Below are positions 1,434-5,150 of a stretch of DNA of 42,506 nt, in pieces. Where the stretch lies: NCBI GenBank assembly GCA_009995595.1, contig JAACPE010000008.1, forward strand, positions 1-42,506. The letters run 5' to 3'. This DNA is from Alphaproteobacteria bacterium. GTDB taxonomy: Bacteria; Pseudomonadota; Alphaproteobacteria; Micavibrionales; Micavibrionaceae. Position 1 is the stretch's first letter. Every line of letters begins with the position of its first letter. The notes under the pieces were generated by a model. That model was not told where the DNA came from, did not search any database, and was given only the letters and a program-made list of their open reading frames with translations. Made by a program: the position numbers and the translations under genes.

Positions 1434-1537
1434 TTTGAATTAAACACGTTAAAAACACTAGTTTTTGCAAAAAAAGCTTGAAAAAATACGCTAATTTCTA
1501 TTTTGTGTGAGTTCCGCTTTATACGGTTAAATAAAGT

Positions 1538-1612
1538 GGGCGGTTAGCTCAGTGGTAGAGCACTTGCTCGACACGCAAGGGGTCACAGGTTCAAGTCCCG
1601 TACCGCCCACCA
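1538..1612 (+). tRNA. tRNA-Val (anticodon GAC), CCA encoded
   Basis: A full cloverleaf can be drawn. The acceptor stem is GGGCGGT (1538-1544) with ACCGCCC (1602-1608), the D stem GCTC/GAGC, the anticodon stem CTTGC/GCAAG with loop TCGACAC (1568-1574), and the T loop TTCAAGT, followed by A1609 and CCA. The anticodon at 1570-1572 is GAC, giving valine. Two features are odd: position 33 (1569) is C instead of the nearly universal T, and the T stem ACAGG/CCCGT has an A-C mismatch (1587 with 1599). It may be a divergent but functional tRNA or one beginning to decay. Confidence 0.92.
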
Positions 1613-1614
1613 TT

Positions 1615-1803
1615 TTAAAACTTCTGCCTAGACTTCAACTGATCATTATCATTGGCAACCGCTGTGCCCTCAATTTTATCGCCATCATTGGCAAGATCAA
1701 AAATCATAGCAAGTTCATCACAACCCCCATAGGCCATGCTCACCGCACGGGAATAGAGCCATTGATGCAAAAAATCGCTATCACTGAAATTAATTTTAGA
1801 CAT
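1615..1803 (-). CDS. Small hypothetical protein (62 aa)
   Basis: This is an unrecognised 62-residue acidic soluble protein with no membrane segment or signal peptide. Support for a real gene is a good ribosome binding site (TAAGGAT) a few bases before the ATG, ordinary amino-acid composition, and a C-terminal AVANDN tract of a kind often seen near the ends of alphaproteobacterial proteins. It ends 3 bases from the tRNA-Val gene on the opposite strand. It is divergent from the 49-residue gene at 1990, and the shared upstream region carries a TTAA-N7-TTAA box and an 11-bp inverted repeat. The open frame on the opposite strand runs through the tRNA and is less credible. No function can be proposed. 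Confidence 0.6.
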   Translation of the reverse strand: MSKINFSDSDFLHQWLYSRAVSMAYGGCDELAMIFDLANDGDKIEGTAVANDNDQLKSRQKF

Positions 1804-1883
1804 AAAAATCCTTACGCTTTAGAAGAAATTCAAACAGTTTTGAATTACGTTTCGTTGAAGAAGGCTGTTATACGGGGCAAGGT

Positions 1884-1898
1884 TTAACAAAAAGTTAA
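1884..1898. promoter_or_regulatory. CtrA-type box TTAA-N7-TTAA
   Basis: TTAACAAAAAGTTAA is a perfect TTAA-N7-TTAA match and is itself an inverted repeat. It differs by one base from the box at 3863-3877 in front of the XRE/CDPS operon. It lies 81 bases upstream of the 62-residue minus-strand gene and 92 bases upstream of the 49-residue plus-strand gene. Binding by CtrA is inference; the AT-rich background lowers the weight of a single hit. Confidence 0.45.
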
Positions 1899-1902
1899 AA
1901 AA

Positions 1903-1937
1903 GTGAATAAATTCATTTATAAGGATAATTTATTCAC
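1903..1937. repeat. Perfect 11-bp inverted repeat in divergent promoter region
   Basis: GTGAATAAATT (1903-1913) and AATTTATTCAC (1927-1937) are exact reverse complements separated by 13 bases. The repeat is AT-rich and sits next to the CtrA-type box between two divergent small genes. It could be a regulator operator or a weak hairpin. A second, overlapping arm pair, CACAGG (1935-1940) and CCTGTG (1959-1964), is followed by six Ts and could act as a weak terminator. Confidence 0.5.
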
Positions 1938-1989
1938 AGGTTTTAAAAATAACAATTGCCTGTGTTTTTTAAACACATAAGATGCCGCT

Positions 1990-2139
1990 ATGAATTTCCT
2001 AACAAGCAGACTCAAATTTTTAAAAAAGCCCTCTAAAAATGTTTTCTGGGCCTGGGTTATTTATCAGGCCATTAAGGGTACGCTCACAACGACATTTATA
2101 TGGGTGCCGCTAATTTACCTATGGTGGACGGGAAGCTAA
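1990..2139 (+). CDS. Small hydrophobic membrane protein (49 aa)
   Basis: A 50-codon frame from ATG 1990 to TAA 2137-2139 encodes a 49-residue protein. It has a basic N-terminus (SRLKFLKKPSK) followed by about 30 mostly hydrophobic, Trp-rich residues (FWAWVIYQAIKG, then FIWVPLIYLWW). The positive-inside pattern suggests one membrane-spanning helix or hairpin with the N-terminus in the cytoplasm. From memory, similar very short proteins with a YQA.KGT core occur in other alphaproteobacteria; this needs a search. There is no strong ribosome binding site, so expression is uncertain. The gene converges with the CDPS operon, whose terminator lies between them. Confidence 0.55.
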   Translation: MNFLTSRLKFLKKPSKNVFWAWVIYQAIKGTLTTTFIWVPLIYLWWTGS

Positions 2140-2278
2140 AACCCGCTCACATCCAATCGTATAGCACCCTTTTGCGACAATCACGCCATTTAGTATTTAT
2201 TAATAGAATCGCGCTATTATTGTAACTGTATTCCCCATACATATTTAGTTTCGGGAGGTCTAGTTCCCAATTAAGAAA

Positions 2279-2309
2279 CCCGCGGGCAGATTTTACTCTG
2301 CACCGCGGG
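2279..2309 (-). terminator. Rho-independent terminator of the XRE/CDPS operon
   Basis: CCCGCGG (2279-2285) pairs with CCGCGGG (2303-2309), and the stem continues with GCAGA/TCTGC around a six-base loop, leaving one bulged base. Read on the minus strand, the hairpin is followed by TTTCTTAATT. It lies 43 bases past the CDPS stop codon and marks the end of that transcript, so no further gene belongs to it. The strong GC stem stands out in this AT-rich island. Confidence 0.75.
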
Positions 2310-2351
2310 CTCTGTGGTGGGGAAACTTTTTTAATTCTTTTAAATTACTTT

Positions 2352-3188
2352 TTAGTTGCCTACAACTTTGATAACTGGAGACGATACAGATAGCGCAGCA
2401 GATCTTTGACCAAACCTTCCATCAAGATTTTGTCTATTTTTAGCAGGTTCACTTGCGCGCACAGATTCTTCTCTAAATTCTATTCTAGTAAAACCATACT
2501 TACTGCCCGAAGTTTTTTGTTCCTCAGGTTTGAATAAGGTACAGGGTAATAAAGAACTTCCTGGATACACATCTGCAGCAAGTTCATCTTCAAACATAAT
2601 TGAAAAGGCAGCACATTCTTCTAACAGGTAATCAGTAGAGTATTGCTGAAATTTTCCGAAATCAAAATCACCAGAAATACCTTCTCTTTTTTGCATTCTA
2701 CTCCAAAAAGATTTAACTTCTTCTTCTACTGCTTGGCTAACCGAAGAGTCATTTCTATGTATATCGGCAACACGATCTCTATGAACTAAATATTCATCCC
2801 TAGACGTCCAATCACTCCATCTTTTTACTTCAAAACGATCGCTCTGACGCATACCTATATTAATATTTCGTTTGATCCACTCATCACCTAAGCGTCTAGC
2901 ATGAGCATAGGCCTCTTTAGGAGTTTCCCCTTCGAACAAGTAATTGTGTCTTTGTAAAGTATCGTTTACACAAATAATAATACGATCAAAATTATCCATT
3001 GCCCATTGCATTGTAGCTTTGAACTTAGGATGTTCATGATTTGGTTTACCAACGCTGATATGAAAACGTGCTGTTTTATGGTCTTTATATCCATCTGCAC
3101 GCTTAACTTTTACAGAGATTACTGCTTCTTCGGAATTATCATTCCCTATAGCAATACCATTGAAATCTAATGGCTTAGAAGCGTTCAT
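2352..3188 (-). CDS. tRNA-dependent cyclodipeptide synthase, XYP-type
   Basis: CDPSs have a Rossmann fold related to class I aminoacyl-tRNA synthetases. They join the amino acids of two aminoacyl-tRNAs into a cyclodipeptide (diketopiperazine) through an acyl-enzyme on a serine. Seen here: ISVGKPNHEHPKF with the candidate nucleophile S45 (AlbC S37), then a WAMDNFDRIIICV strand and DTLQRHN (76-82), which I recall as a hallmark of XYP-type enzymes. Next come GDEWIKRN (101-108) and KRWSDW (122-127). Y187-L-L-E-E191 matches the AlbC Y178/E182 pair, and D206-V-Y208-P209-G matches the Y202-P203 signature. About 50 residues of polar tail follow the core, making this 278-residue protein longer than typical members. 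It overlaps the upstream XRE gene by 14 nt, so translation is probably coupled. No cyclodipeptide oxidase, P450 or methyltransferase is nearby. The product cannot be predicted. The family call is strong; the XYP subclass is good but unverified. Confidence 0.86.
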   Translation of the reverse strand: MNASKPLDFNGIAIGNDNSEEAVISVKVKRADGYKDHKTARFHISVGKPNHEHPKFKATMQWAMDNFDRIIICVNDTLQRHNYLFEGETPKEAYAHARRLGDEWIKRNINIGMRQSDRFEVKRWSDWTSRDEYLVHRDRVADIHRNDSSVSQAVEEEVKSFWSRMQKREGISGDFDFGKFQQYSTDYLLEECAAFSIMFEDELAADVYPGSSLLPCTLFKPEEQKTSGSKYGFTRIEFREESVRASEPAKNRQNLDGRFGQRSAALSVSSPVIKVVGN

Positions 3189-3825
3189 TTGATGTACTCT
3201 CCACTGGTTGTTCTAATATGCTCCAAAGCATATTAAATGTATTACGTTGTATCTCAGCATTAATAGGGTCAACTCTGATTGATGCCCTTAACACATTAGA
3301 GGTTTCATTAGCTATTCTATCTCCATAGACTAAAGTCACTCTGTTAATAAAAAATCCCTTTTTAATATAACGGTATTCCTCTAGAGGCCCCATCATATAA
3401 GTATTACCTTCTTCAATGAGCTGACGCATTTTTATGCCTTCATTTCTCATCTGCCTGTATTTATCGTTTACTTTCTTTGATGATACCTTGTCATCTGAAT
3501 ACATAATTAAAAGCTCAGGATTTTTGTGACCTTTTAATTGCTCTGACACATCTTCTAATATTTTAAGATATGTCTCTTCATGGGTATCAGTCTCAATAAA
3601 GAAAATAGGGTTTAAATTTCTTTTTACACCATCATTCTCTGTAAACTCTACACCCTCGCGCTCATAGAACCGCTGTATGTCCGTAAGCCGAGTGCCTGAC
3701 ACATCGCTTTGGCCGCTTTCTATTTTTGACAGTGTGTTGGCAGCTATCCCTAAATACTCGGCTACATGCCCTTGGGAAACATCCAACATCGCTCTCGCGG
3801 CTCTCATTTGTGTCGGCGTAATCAT
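3175..3825 (-). CDS. XRE-family regulator with C-terminal sensor-like domain
   Basis: This protein has 216 residues. Residues 4-56 form a Cro/C1-type helix-turn-helix (RAARAMLDVSQGHVAEYLGI, then NTLSKIESGQ). A roughly 130-residue domain follows, with strands such as ELLIMYSDD, MRQLIEEG, INRVTLVYGDRIA and a final NTFNMLWSIL helix. The arrangement of an effector strand, a YGD turn and a terminal F..LW helix recalls the PLD-like sensor modules of TrmB-type regulators; that is inference. The start follows a weak AAGAA motif and gives the usual MITP.Q.RAAR N-terminus. It is first in an operon with the CDPS gene and overlaps it by 14 nt. It probably controls its own promoter, where a 12-bp palindrome and a CtrA-type box lie 26-53 bases upstream. 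Confidence 0.85.
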   Translation of the reverse strand: MITPTQMRAARAMLDVSQGHVAEYLGIAANTLSKIESGQSDVSGTRLTDIQRFYEREGVEFTENDGVKRNLNPIFFIETDTHEETYLKILEDVSEQLKGHKNPELLIMYSDDKVSSKKVNDKYRQMRNEGIKMRQLIEEGNTYMMGPLEEYRYIKKGFFINRVTLVYGDRIANETSNVLRASIRVDPINAEIQRNTFNMLWSILEQPVESTSNERF

Positions 3826-3850
3826 TCTTGTTTTCTTTCTTAATCGCGTT

Positions 3851-3862
3851 GAGTTTAAACTC
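3851..3862. promoter_or_regulatory. Perfect palindrome, candidate XRE operator
   Basis: GAGTTTAAACTC is a perfect 12-bp palindrome 26 bases upstream of the XRE start codon. XRE dimers commonly bind such short palindromes next to their own gene, so autoregulation is plausible. It directly abuts the TTAA-N7-TTAA box at 3863, so two regulators could compete here. Confidence 0.5.
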
Positions 3863-3878
3863 TTAACGAAAAGTTAAC
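3863..3878. promoter_or_regulatory. CtrA-type box before the XRE/CDPS operon
   Basis: TTAACGAAAAGTTAAC matches TTAA-N7-TTAA(C) and is symmetric (TTAAC/GTTAA). It lies 38 bases upstream of the XRE start, where it could overlap the promoter. It is nearly identical to the box at 1884-1898. Assignment to CtrA rests on the motif only. Confidence 0.5.
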
Positions 3879-3980
3879 ATGAATATTGCGTCCTTTATAG
3901 CAGGATAATTTAGCATTGCAAGGGATTTTTTTCATATTCTTGTAAGAAAATTCTCCTTTCGGGGGATAAAACTCACTTTT

Positions 3981-3996
3981 TTAACCATTTATTAAC
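3981..3996. promoter_or_regulatory. CtrA-type box before the 102-aa gene
   Basis: TTAACCATTTATTAAC contains the half-site TTAACCAT and the full TTAA-N7-TTAAC spacing, the best match to the Caulobacter CtrA consensus in the window. It is 58 bases upstream of the ATG at 4055 and about 155 bases upstream of the divergent XRE gene. Confidence 0.55.
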
Positions 3997-4054
3997 TTTT
4001 TATCTTTACATTTTCTCATATCGCAACTATTATGAAAAACATAAAGGAACCCAA

Positions 4055-4363
4055 ATGACCCTAATAACCCTATCAGCGAATAACGTCACCCCAATGTTTT
4101 CGCCGGCAATGAAAAGAGAATTCATGGCACAGCAACCCAAAACACAAACACAAGAGCTTTCGATCTTTGATGTAAAAGAGCTTTACGATCTCGCTTACGA
4201 TCAAAAAGCAAAAGGCGCGAGCGCAGAAAAATTTCAGGCTTTAATGGCTGATGCCCTACAATTGGATATGGCTTATCGCCGCCAGCTCGCCAAGAATAAC
4301 CCTTACAGACAAATCAAGCGCAGCGCAAACAAGCAAGAAAGCACAGAAACAAAAGTCGCTTAA
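4055..4363 (+). CDS. Hypothetical protein (102 aa)
   Basis: I do not recognise this protein. It has no signal peptide or membrane segment. The middle (about residues 35-80, FDVKELYDLAYDQKAKG...ALQLDMAYRRQLAKN) is predicted helical and amphipathic, with a basic C-terminal tail, which would fit a small helical cytoplasmic or nucleic-acid-associated protein. ATG 4055 has a good ribosome binding site (AAAGGAA). A second in-frame ATG at 4124 starts MAQQPK and would remove a 23-residue leader. It is transcribed divergently from the XRE/CDPS operon, has its own CtrA-type box and ends at a clear terminator, so it forms a single-gene transcription unit. Confidence 0.65.
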   Translation: MTLITLSANNVTPMFSPAMKREFMAQQPKTQTQELSIFDVKELYDLAYDQKAKGASAEKFQALMADALQLDMAYRRQLAKNNPYRQIKRSANKQESTETKVA

Positions 4364-4414
4364 GCATAAAGTTTACAGGTATCAATTATCCCCGATTGAT
4401 TTAACCTCTCTACG

Positions 4415-4446
4415 AAACCCGTCGCAACAAACGACGGGTTTTTGTT
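4415..4446 (+). terminator. Rho-independent terminator after the 102-aa gene
   Basis: AAACCCGTCG (4415-4424) pairs perfectly with CGACGGGTTT (4432-4441) around a seven-base loop, followed by TTGTTTGTC. It lies about 50 bases after the stop codon of the 102-residue gene. Confidence 0.85.
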
Positions 4447-4601
4447 TGTCATAAAAAACACTTCTTAAAATTCAAGATAAAGTTGAACTAAATCCGAATA
4501 GAAAAGACGTGTCACACGCGCCGATTCGCGCTATACTCATAGGATAAGGCGGCTTTCTTATCGCTGTATTCATTCTGATTTCATAAAATAAAGATCAAAA
4601 C

Positions 4602-5150
4602 ATGGTAACAAAACGAAACATCTATCTTTTCTTTGGCTTGCTCGCTTGCGCATATATATTTGTGTATTCTTATGCCAATGCCCAAGAGGTCACAAGCGCC
4701 CCTATCGCTGGCGGCATTTTTGATATTGCCCCCTCGGCAAGCGCAGATGTCATGGAAAGTAATGCCGCGTTTGATAGCGATATGACGCATCCTGTTTTAT
4801 ACCTTACGCCCGATAAATCGGAGCTTGTGCGCCTTGACCAAGACGCCGCCAGTGTAATTGTCGGCAACCCCAATCATCTCAGCGTGATGCTCGATACTCC
4901 CAACACCCTCGTTGTTGTGCCGCGCGCGCAAGGCGCTAGCTACTTTACCGTGATGGGCAAAGATGGCTCAATCCTCATGCAGCGCCACGCGATTGTTGGC
5001 GGTAATCAGCAAGACAATTATGTCCGTATCCGCCGAAGCTGCGGCGCGAATTCTGGCAATGACTGTCAGGAAACCAGCGTTTACTTCTGCCCCGATGTTT
5101 GTCACGAAGTGAGCCTGGACCAGCAAGCAAGCACTAGTCGCCGCCGATAA
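4602..5150 (+). CDS. Stand-alone pilus assembly N-terminal (CpaC-N/RcpA-N) domain protein
   Basis: The first 27 residues form a signal peptide or N-terminal anchor ending ANAQ. Residues about 65-130 contain the small domain normally found at the front of the CpaC/RcpA secretin: SELVRLDQDAASVIVGNP, then LSVMLDTPNTLVVVPRAQGASYFTVMGKDG. The secretin barrel is missing, so this is a free periplasmic copy that may assist or cap the Tad secretin. The C-terminal 45 residues hold four cysteines (RRSCG..NDCQ..YFCPDVC), which could form disulfides in the periplasm. The full-length cpaC is at 11437-12966. The gene pairs with the TadD-like gene 54 nt downstream, on the strand opposite to the main tad operon. 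Confidence 0.78.
   Translation: MVTKRNIYLFFGLLACAYIFVYSYANAQEVTSAPIAGGIFDIAPSASADVMESNAAFDSDMTHPVLYLTPDKSELVRLDQDAASVIVGNPNHLSVMLDTPNTLVVVPRAQGASYFTVMGKDGSILMQRHAIVGGNQQDNYVRIRRSCGANSGNDCQETSVYFCPDVCHEVSLDQQASTSRRR

What the first reader, a model, noticed from the sequence alone, without database searches (positions are those of the whole stretch)
2352..3188. Cyclodipeptide synthase in an otherwise housekeeping alphaproteobacterial region
The 278-residue protein keeps every position I would test in a CDPS: candidate nucleophile S45, DTLQRHN, GDEWI.RN, the Y187/E191 pair and Y208-P209. It is an orphan: no tailoring gene follows, and a strong terminator closes the operon. A bare cyclodipeptide made under control of its own regulator, possibly as a signal or interspecies compound, would be a new system for this lineage. 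The product is unknown.
Basis: partly seen in the sequence, partly recalled or inferred. Interest (0 to 1): 0.88.

Follow-up and report, generated by a model that had tools for sequence, protein, structure and literature searches.

The report
Swappable cyclodipeptide enzyme and sensor cassette
The gene encodes what looks like a working cyclodipeptide-making enzyme, and it belongs to an exchangeable pair: related bacteria carry a different enzyme, with a matching sensor, at the same place beside the same DNA-binding switch, which looks like a chemical signal that species can swap.

Summary
Window 2352-3188, minus strand, encodes a cyclodipeptide synthase (CDPS) of XYP type with conserved active-site residues and no tailoring gene behind it.

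It is not an isolated orphan. It overlaps the gene of a regulator: an XRE helix-turn-helix plus a TrmB/phospholipase-D-like sensor domain. In the order, 42 of 44 CDPS places have this regulator directly upstream; the two exceptions are 5'-truncated remnants.

In all 10 genomes of the genus the regulator sits beside the same pilus genes, but the next gene differs: CDPS, EgtD-like methyltransferase, formyltransferase-like or unassigned. The DNA-binding half is 82-100% identical throughout. The sensor half is 16-39% identical between enzyme types and 50-76% within them. A second locus shows breakpoints at the domain boundary and just after the enzyme gene, inside 87% identical DNA. On the sensor tree enzyme type needs 3 changes, the minimum; on the DNA-binding tree, 14.

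Best reading: exchangeable cassettes of enzyme plus cognate sensor, the sensor reading the enzyme's product, resembling polymorphic quorum sensing. Exchange and pairing are well supported; ligand and signalling are inferred.

The parts
2352..3188 (-). Cyclodipeptide synthase, XYP type, 278 aa (S45, Y187, E191, Y208-P209)
3175..3825 (-). Regulator, 216 aa: XRE helix-turn-helix plus TrmB/PLD-like sensor domain; its last 14 nt overlap the CDPS start if the first ATG is used
3628..3825 (-). Fixed part: DNA-binding half (residues 1-66); residues 1-58 are 82-100% identical among all 10 genomes of the genus
2352..3627 (-). Exchangeable cassette: sensor half of the regulator plus the enzyme gene
   Evidence: breakpoints seen directly only at the G031/G060 locus
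3826..4054 (.). Intergenic region between regulator and divergent gene, conserved in patches in the genus; presumed operator and promoters. A TTGCAA...TATA pair reading towards the regulator is in 6 of 10 genomes by a pattern taken from the alignment itself; the general scan did not list it. No operator identified
4055..4363 (+). Divergent small gene (102 aa, no Pfam or PHROG family), homologue beside the regulator in all 10 genomes of the genus; possible target
4602..5150 (+). Pilus formation protein (T2SS-T3SS_pil_N), start of the conserved pilus neighbourhood
2274..2313 (-). Strong hairpin after the CDPS stop, possible terminator
   Evidence: not listed by the simple scan

Best explanation
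The CDPS and the C-terminal sensor domain of the regulator in front of it form an exchangeable cassette at a locus whose DNA-binding domain, intergenic region and divergent neighbour stay. SHOWN by sequence: CDPS identity; pairing with the regulator at 42 of 44 CDPS places in this order; replacement of the enzyme at the same locus by unrelated families (EgtD-like methyltransferase, formyltransferase-like), with an LPG_synthase_C-like family behind the same regulator family elsewhere; sensor type tracking enzyme type; breakpoints at the domain boundary and just after the enzyme gene at one locus. INFERRED: CDPS joins two aminoacyl-tRNA amino acids into a bare cyclodipeptide, the cognate sensor domain binds that product (or a close derivative), and binding changes occupancy of a fixed operator, controlling the operon itself and probably the divergent gene next to the pilus genes. 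Lineages change the chemical they make and read without rewiring the output, in the way polymorphic quorum-sensing loci do. Whether the product leaves the cell as a signal or is read only inside it is open.
For: Pairing: 42 of 44 CDPS places in 142 genomes of the order have the regulator directly upstream (41 of 43 checked; G033 by coordinates); the 2 exceptions lack the N-terminal region with the catalytic Ser and lie beside genes that read like a transposase and an integrase. The Pfam-based search, not seeded by linked genes, gave 20 places, all 20 paired. In a named collection 26 of 69 CDPS loci have the regulator upstream, 21 of these 26 labelled alphaproteobacterial. Swap: all 10 genomes of the genus have the regulator beside the same pilus-side genes; next gene CDPS in 2, Methyltransf_33 in 3, Formyl_trans_N-like in 3, unassigned in 1, cut by the contig end in 1. 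DNA-binding residues 1-58 are 82-100% identical; sensor residues 80-203 are 16-25% identical between CDPS type and the rest and 29-39% between methyltransferase and formyltransferase types, against 76% CDPS-CDPS, 50-66% methyltransferase type (with G003) and 56-73% formyltransferase type. Reverse pattern: window against G023 and G073 (another genus, another family) DNA-binding 21/60 and 13/60, sensor 81/134 and 74/134. Second locus: G031 (CDPS) and G060 (methyltransferase), both single-contig genomes, share 87% nt flanks that stop at the junction of the two halves and resume about 9 nt after the CDPS stop codon. Tree: 3 label changes on the sensor tree against 14 on the DNA-binding tree, 75 labelled of 91 rows. 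In 40 CDPS pairs, CDPS-sensor distance correlation given DNA-binding distance 0.73 (0 of 2000 permutations as high); CDPS-DNA-binding given sensor -0.04 (1344 of 2000). Sensor fold: TrmB/TrmBL2 and PLD relatives, model pLDDT 93.6; the HKD motif in 0 of 91 regulators, so ligand binding is likelier than catalysis.
Against: No ligand, product or expression data. Cognate pairing would also arise if the sensor bound the enzyme protein itself or its substrate. No exporter gene was seen to travel with the pair. The profile that gave 44 places was built from CDPSs that were already paired, so unlike CDPSs in the order could be missed. Alphaproteobacterial CDPS loci without the regulator exist (L100 labelled Caedibacter, L116, L118; also L140 labelled Proteobacteria). 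In 43 regulator copies sampled away from known CDPS loci, 9 have no enzyme-sized gene behind them (not a random sample). Three regulators with a CDPS-type sensor have no CDPS, which fits solo receptors but also decay. The DNA-binding tree is itself clustered by label (25 changes for all seven groups, shuffled mean 44; sensor tree 13), and with 60 columns it is poorly resolved, so some of its extra changes may be noise. Fold match to TrmB is moderate (TM about 0.4 by query length). At the second locus the neighbour is not a pilus gene, so the output is not constant between loci. Synteny in the genus rests on the pilus side; the tRNA-Val side was seen in the fetched stretches only for the window, G009, G001 and, about 9 kb off with other genes between, G007. 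Family calls for G004 (23.4 bits against 23) and G001 (20.9 against 26.1) are marginal.
Confidence: 0.6

Rival explanations
1. Local metabolic control: the sensor reads the enzyme's amino-acid substrate or product purely for feedback on the enzyme's own operon, with no cell-to-cell signal. The product is an ordinary metabolite or antibiotic.
For: All the pairing and swap evidence fits equally; XRE regulators with cupin sensor domains that drive metabolic diversification are described for Pseudomonas (PMC7901475, search listing only); no exporter or second component seen.
Against: Does not by itself explain why enzymes of unrelated chemistry alternate at one place beside one fixed DNA-binding domain and neighbour, nor regulators with a CDPS-type sensor but no CDPS.
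Confidence: 0.25
2. Protein-protein pairing: the sensor half binds the enzyme protein (toxin-antitoxin-like or trigger-enzyme control), so sensor and enzyme must match for structural reasons.
For: Overlapping two-gene operon with an HTH gene first; sensor and enzyme distances correlate; weak, below cut-off similarity of the HTH to antitoxin and phage-repressor HTH models.
Against: One PLD-like domain family would have to bind several unrelated enzyme folds; no PADLOC match for the CDPS, one methyltransferase or one GNAT-like partner; the enzymes look like amino-acid chemistry, not toxins; the fold neighbour TrmB is a small-molecule sensor (its function recalled).
Confidence: 0.1
3. Ordinary orphan CDPS with a chance XRE neighbour, acquired by horizontal transfer.
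For: The region is AT-rich (34-40% GC in 500-base windows over about 1500-4500, against about 42-53% on either side), and CDPS presence is patchy (36 of 142 genomes in the order).
Against: 42 of 44 pairing, label parsimony and correlated distances.
Confidence: 0.03

Closest known systems
XYP cyclodipeptide synthases (PF16715; Fluoribacter dumoffii, Nocardia brasiliensis, Rickettsiella grylli enzymes)
   Same: Sequence family, fold, nucleophile Ser, Tyr/Glu pair, Tyr-Pro motif
   Different: Paired with a sensor regulator and no tailoring gene. In passages of PMC5816076 ('regulator' 0 and 'transcription' 0 occurrences), PMC2922099 ('HTH' 0, 'transcription' 0) and PMC5767969 (passages, section 9) partners named are oxidases, methyltransferases, ligases, transporters and, for some loci, PAS domains; this pairing was not seen there
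agr quorum sensing of staphylococci
   Same: A hypervariable region within the genes of signal precursor, processing protein and receptor (passages of PMC10482373); that the rest is conserved is partly recalled
   Different: agr uses a peptide, a membrane kinase and a response regulator; here a cytoplasmic one-protein regulator and unrelated enzyme families in place of peptide alleles
LuxI/LuxR and DPO/VqmA systems
   Same: Small-molecule synthesis plus a cytoplasmic receptor-transcription factor; DPO is derived from threonine and alanine and read by VqmA (passages of PMC6622552)
   Different: Different protein families by the searches here; synthase identity changes between alleles; an autoinducer role is untested
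TrmB / TrmBL2 of archaea
   Same: Helix-turn-helix plus PLD-like domain
   Different: The HTH here is of Cro/C1 (HTH_3) type and the partner is a downstream enzyme gene rather than sugar transport (TrmB role recalled)
XRE-cupin regulators of Pseudomonas
   Same: XRE DNA-binding domain with a signal-sensing domain (PMC7901475, listing only)
   Different: Cupin instead of a PLD-like domain; no allele swap was looked for

Membership tests
Cyclodipeptide synthase (PF16715 / TIGR04539) | Profile match over curated cut-off | tested here: met
   38.3 vs 27 bits; 55.3 vs 45 bits
Cyclodipeptide synthase (PF16715 / TIGR04539) | Catalytic Ser and Tyr/Glu pair conserved | tested here: met
   S45, E190 and Y208 invariant in 20 rows; E191 invariant and Y187 nearly so in 11 rows. 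Roles of these residues recalled from AlbC
Cyclodipeptide synthase (PF16715 / TIGR04539) | Class-I aminoacyl-tRNA-synthetase-like fold | tested here: met
   Foldseek: CDPS structures first, tyrosyl-tRNA synthetases after
Cyclodipeptide synthase (PF16715 / TIGR04539) | Makes a cyclodipeptide from aminoacyl-tRNAs | not testable with these tools
   Needs expression and LC-MS
XYP subfamily of CDPS | Tyr-Pro motif and nearest solved relatives of XYP type | tested here: met
   Y208-P209; nearest 5ocd, 9i5m, 5mlq. That these solved enzymes are XYP is recalled
TrmB-like sensor regulators | HTH plus PLD-like domain without the HKD catalytic motif | tested here: met
   the HTH subtype differs
TrmB-like sensor regulators | Binds a small molecule | not testable with these tools
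   -
Polymorphic quorum-sensing locus (works like) | Variable block holding signal maker and cognate sensing domain, conserved output domain | tested here: met
   that the enzyme makes a signal is inferred
Polymorphic quorum-sensing locus (works like) | Secreted signal, density dependence, cognate activation | not testable with these tools
   -
Toxin-antitoxin or defence system | Toxin or defence family match for the enzyme | tested here: not met
   CDPS, the C2 methyltransferase and one GNAT-like partner: 0 PADLOC families; the regulator matches 7 through its N-terminal HTH region

The most novel reading that the evidence does not exclude
A new class of polymorphic bacterial chemical communication in Micavibrio-like alphaproteobacteria: cytoplasmic XRE/TrmB-like receptors, each matched to an adjacent synthase, whose sensor-plus-synthase cassettes are exchanged under a fixed DNA-binding domain, so that related bacteria use cyclodipeptides, methylated or formylated amino-acid compounds as alternative 'languages' with the same output. 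It would give a dedicated cyclodipeptide receptor paired with its CDPS, of which I know no earlier case.
Probability: 0.42. Interest if true: 0.95.

Novelty: categorically new. Interest (0 to 1): 0.85.

Why it matters
Why bacteria make bare cyclodipeptides, and what senses them, is largely open (general knowledge). Here the genome itself pairs a CDPS with a candidate receptor domain, and natural swaps give ready-made chimeras to test: same DNA-binding domain, different sensor and enzyme. If the sensor reads the enzyme's product, this yields a cyclodipeptide receptor, a family of matched sensors for several amino-acid-derived products (the regulator family is in 102 of 104 searched genomes of the bacterial family at E <= 1e-20), and a genomic route to predict which enzyme makes which signal. 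Micavibrio aeruginosavorus is an obligate predator (PMC3189940, abstract in listing), and the window locus lies beside pilus genes, so control of surface behaviour is a reasonable guess.

Tried and rejected
Orphan CDPS with a chance neighbour: rejected by the 42 of 44 pairing. Plain fast evolution of the sensor half: rejected because distant sensors of the same enzyme type are more alike than sensors at the same locus, and because of a sharp breakpoint. Defence or toxin-antitoxin: no supporting family match for the enzymes tested. Plasmid carriage: one weak HTH-only hit among 72,556 plasmid records; a viral scan could not be run. A shared operator was sought in the intergenic regions; only AT-rich words and, in 6 of 10, a promoter-like pair recur, so no operator is claimed. 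The own second CDPS locus (C3) against G004 C3 was looked at as a third swap: one 75% nt match, on one side only, and DNA-binding half 20/59, so it is not counted. No product prediction was attempted: the specificity-pocket motifs of PMC5816076 did not come through in the passages seen. I first took 5ocd for the Rickettsiella enzyme (also in a notebook entry); one search shows it is Fluoribacter dumoffii.

Regulator gene starts and CDPS starts are those of the longest frames, not verified; with them 37 of the 41 pairs overlap. Ungapped windows lose register outside the regulator's first half and are not used as identities. Papers: PMC5816076, PMC2922099, PMC3189940, PMC10482373 and PMC6622552 passages only; PMC5767969 passages plus section 9; PMC7901475 listing only. 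Searches behind 'not found in print': in a library of open-licence papers only; several list only the best of many papers.

Full report
WHAT IS THERE. Window 2352-3188 on the minus strand encodes a 278-aa protein that matches the CDPS models above their curated cut-offs, is nearest among solved structures to Fluoribacter dumoffii and Nocardia brasiliensis CDPS, and folds like them. With the first ATG the gene overlaps by 14 nt the end of a 216-aa regulator gene, 3175-3825. No ORF over 62 codons follows on that strand before the tRNA-Val, and a strong hairpin lies after the stop (not listed by the simple terminator scan).

THE REGULATOR. Its first 60 residues are a Cro/C1-type helix-turn-helix (HTH_3 31.6 bits, cut-off 23). 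The rest has no Pfam family above cut-off. An AlphaFold model built from the window protein and 24 relatives (pLDDT 93.6) resembles TrmBL2, TrmB and phospholipase-D nucleases (TM about 0.4 by query length). The HKD motif of that superfamily (motif recalled) is in 0 of 91 regulators. The simplest reading is a catalytically dead PLD-like sensor, as in TrmB.

THE PAIR IS THE UNIT. The genome has a second CDPS, also directly behind a copy of the regulator, and a third regulator copy followed by an EgtD-like methyltransferase. The Pfam CDPS model finds 20 places in 18 of 95 genomes, the own included (10 genomes over the curated cut-off); all 20, and the own second copy, have the regulator directly upstream. 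A profile of 20 of these CDPSs finds 44 places in 36 of 142 genomes of the order at E <= 1e-8. In 42 of 44 the regulator is directly upstream on the same strand: 41 of 43, and G033 from the coordinates. The two exceptions are CDPS remnants without the N-terminal region carrying the catalytic Ser, one beside a transposase-like gene and one beside an integrase-like gene (these two labels are my reading of the translations). In a named collection, 26 of 69 CDPS loci have the regulator upstream: 21 of the 26 are labelled alphaproteobacterial, five of those Micavibrio, and the other five are labelled bacterium, Proteobacteria, Pseudomonadota, Flavobacteriales and Nitrospinaceae (the last two may be binning errors). 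Several of these are the same contigs as in the order set, so the two counts are not independent. The other 43 of 69 (Legionella, Photorhabdus, Xenorhabdus, Pseudomonas, actinobacteria and others, but also L100 labelled Caedibacter, L116 Alphaproteobacteria, L118 Rhodobacteraceae and L140 Proteobacteria) show no such gene; a few of these contigs begin under 1 kb upstream. By the Pfam model CDPS is in only 1 of 398 genomes, the window's own, in an even draw of the phylum.

OTHER PARTNERS. The regulator family is in 102 of 104 genomes of the bacterial family at E <= 1e-20, one to eight copies each. I took 40 stretches around copies from the upper part of that ranked list that were not already known to precede a CDPS; they hold 43 copies above the score used. 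Of these, 23 are followed by a protein of one sequence cluster, 5 by an LPG_synthase_C-like protein, 2 by CDPS, 4 by other genes, and 9 by no gene of 200 codons or more. The sample is not random. Of the 23-member cluster five were tested against Pfam and four match Methyltransf_33, L172 matching nothing. Of the five LPG-like proteins one exceeds the Pfam cut-off, three are below it and one has no match.

THE SWAP AT THE WINDOW LOCUS. All 10 genomes of the genus carry the regulator at the same place, divergent from the small gene and the pilus gene that follows it (the names TadB, TadC and CpaF for the genes further on are recalled from the translations, the pilus domain of 4602-5150 is). The gene after the regulator is CDPS in 2 (window and G006), Methyltransf_33 in 3 (59.6, 31.4 and a marginal 23.4 bits against 23), formyltransferase-like in 3 (37.7, 29.9 and, below the 26.1 cut-off, 20.9 bits), unassigned in 1, and cut off by the contig end in 1. 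Residues 1-58 are 82-100% identical in all pairs. The sensor half is 16-25% identical between the two CDPS-type regulators and the rest and 29-39% between methyltransferase and formyltransferase types, but 76% between the two CDPS-type ones, 50-66% within the methyltransferase type (G003 included) and 56-73% within the formyltransferase type (the figures shift by a few points with the alignment). Against four regulators of other types, identity per ten residues is 6-10 up to residue 70 and 0-2 in residues 71-80. The pattern reverses across genera: with the G023 and G073 regulators the window shares 21/60 and 13/60 in the DNA-binding half but 81/134 and 74/134 in the sensor half. Synonymous sites are well diverged in G006 (5 of 26 fourfold sites alike), so the DNA-binding half is held by selection there; against G009 it is unusually alike (24 of 31, against 27 of 70 for the TadC-like gene), which suggests recent recombination in that half.

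A SECOND LOCUS WITH VISIBLE BREAKPOINTS. G031 and G060, single-contig genomes of another genus, share stretches of 3.7 kb and 3.2 kb at 87% nucleotide identity. The first match ends in the regulator at the junction of the two halves, the second resumes about 9 nt after the CDPS stop codon; between them G031 has sensor plus CDPS, and G060 has another sensor, a methyltransferase, a further regulator on the other strand and a 120-codon frame. The exchanged piece therefore begins with the sensor half and includes the enzyme.

STATISTICS. On a tree of sensor halves the four enzyme labels (75 labelled of 91 rows) need 3 changes, the minimum possible; on the tree of DNA-binding halves 14. With all seven groups counted it is 13 against 25, shuffled mean 44 for both, so the DNA-binding halves are clustered too, only less. 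Both trees are short, quick searches with many unresolved forks. All 41 CDPS-type sensors lie in one 44-row set (SH-aLRT 97); the other three have no enzyme. In 40 CDPS pairs the enzyme distance follows the sensor distance (r 0.76; 0.73 given the DNA-binding half; 0 of 2000 permutations as high) and not the DNA-binding half once the sensor is accounted for (-0.04; 1344 of 2000). One contig-cut pair (L217) was dropped before this count.

MECHANISM. Sensor and enzyme travel and evolve together while the DNA-binding domain and its neighbourhood stay. The most economical account is that the sensor reads what the enzyme makes. All four enzyme families plausibly act on amino acids or amino groups: CDPS on aminoacyl-tRNA, EgtD-like enzymes on amino acids, formyltransferases on amino groups, and LPG_synthase_C-like enzymes probably on aminoacyl-tRNA (family knowledge, not tested). 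Whether the product is a signal between cells, an internal gauge or an antibiotic with feedback is not decided by sequence; I give signalling about 0.4. The closest precedent for the genetics is the agr hypervariable region (PMC10482373 passages); the closest for the biochemistry is a cytoplasmic receptor for an amino-acid-derived signal such as VqmA (PMC6622552 passages). PMC5767969 suggested a signalling role for some CDPS products from nearby PAS domains (section 9); no receptor pairing of the present kind appeared in what I read or in the search listings named.

ORGANISM. Equal contig lengths tie G006 to a MAG 'Alphaproteobacteria bacterium OFTM75' (269653 bases) and G109 to 'Micavibrio sp. 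UBA6212' (305020 bases), so the window genome is most likely a Micavibrio-like alphaproteobacterium of 2.0 Mb (inference). The M. aeruginosavorus ARL-13 paper reports LuxI/LuxR-type genes, and 'cyclodipeptide' occurs 0 times in its main text (passages).

NOVELTY. The enzyme alone is a new member of a known family. The locus, a fixed DNA-binding domain under which matched sensor-plus-synthase cassettes of unrelated chemistry are exchanged, is of a kind I found no description of in the searches named; the architecture is what I rate as categorically new, and its function as signalling is unproven.

Noticed in passing
L148:5147-5830 (G060): A regulator with a CDPS-type sensor but no CDPS sits inside the exchanged stretch, tail to tail with the methyltransferase gene; it may be a solo receptor left to listen.
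   Followed up: partly
L259:400-1143 (G008) and L159:5394-6323 (G120): Proteins of 247 and 309 aa in the enzyme slot without a Pfam match over cut-off or any NCBIfam match; candidate unknown synthases.
   Followed up: partly
L102:907-3076 (MAG labelled Hyphomicrobium): Regulator followed by two CDPS genes in tandem, the second matching the local profile (143 bits) but not Pfam.
   Followed up: partly
L126:5007-6887: Regulator-linked 626-aa protein with a diverged CDPS region (Pfam 14.9 bits, below cut-off) and a long unassigned remainder, a possible fusion.
   Followed up: partly
L165, L167, L174, L177, L180: LPG_synthase_C-like GNAT proteins directly behind the same regulator family, possibly aminoacyl-tRNA dependent.
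   Followed up: partly
window 4055-4363: Small gene without family, divergent from the regulator in all 10 genomes of the genus, and also beside the own C2 methyltransferase locus (L027:7004-7231) and a CDPS locus of another genus (L043:3544-3771).
   Followed up: partly
L026:8867-13268 (own contig C3): Next to the second CDPS locus lie genes that read like a type III restriction-modification pair (label recalled from the translations, not searched).
   Followed up: no
L182 and L181: Two regulator copies side by side, tandem in L182 and tail to tail in L181, without an enzyme gene.
   Followed up: no
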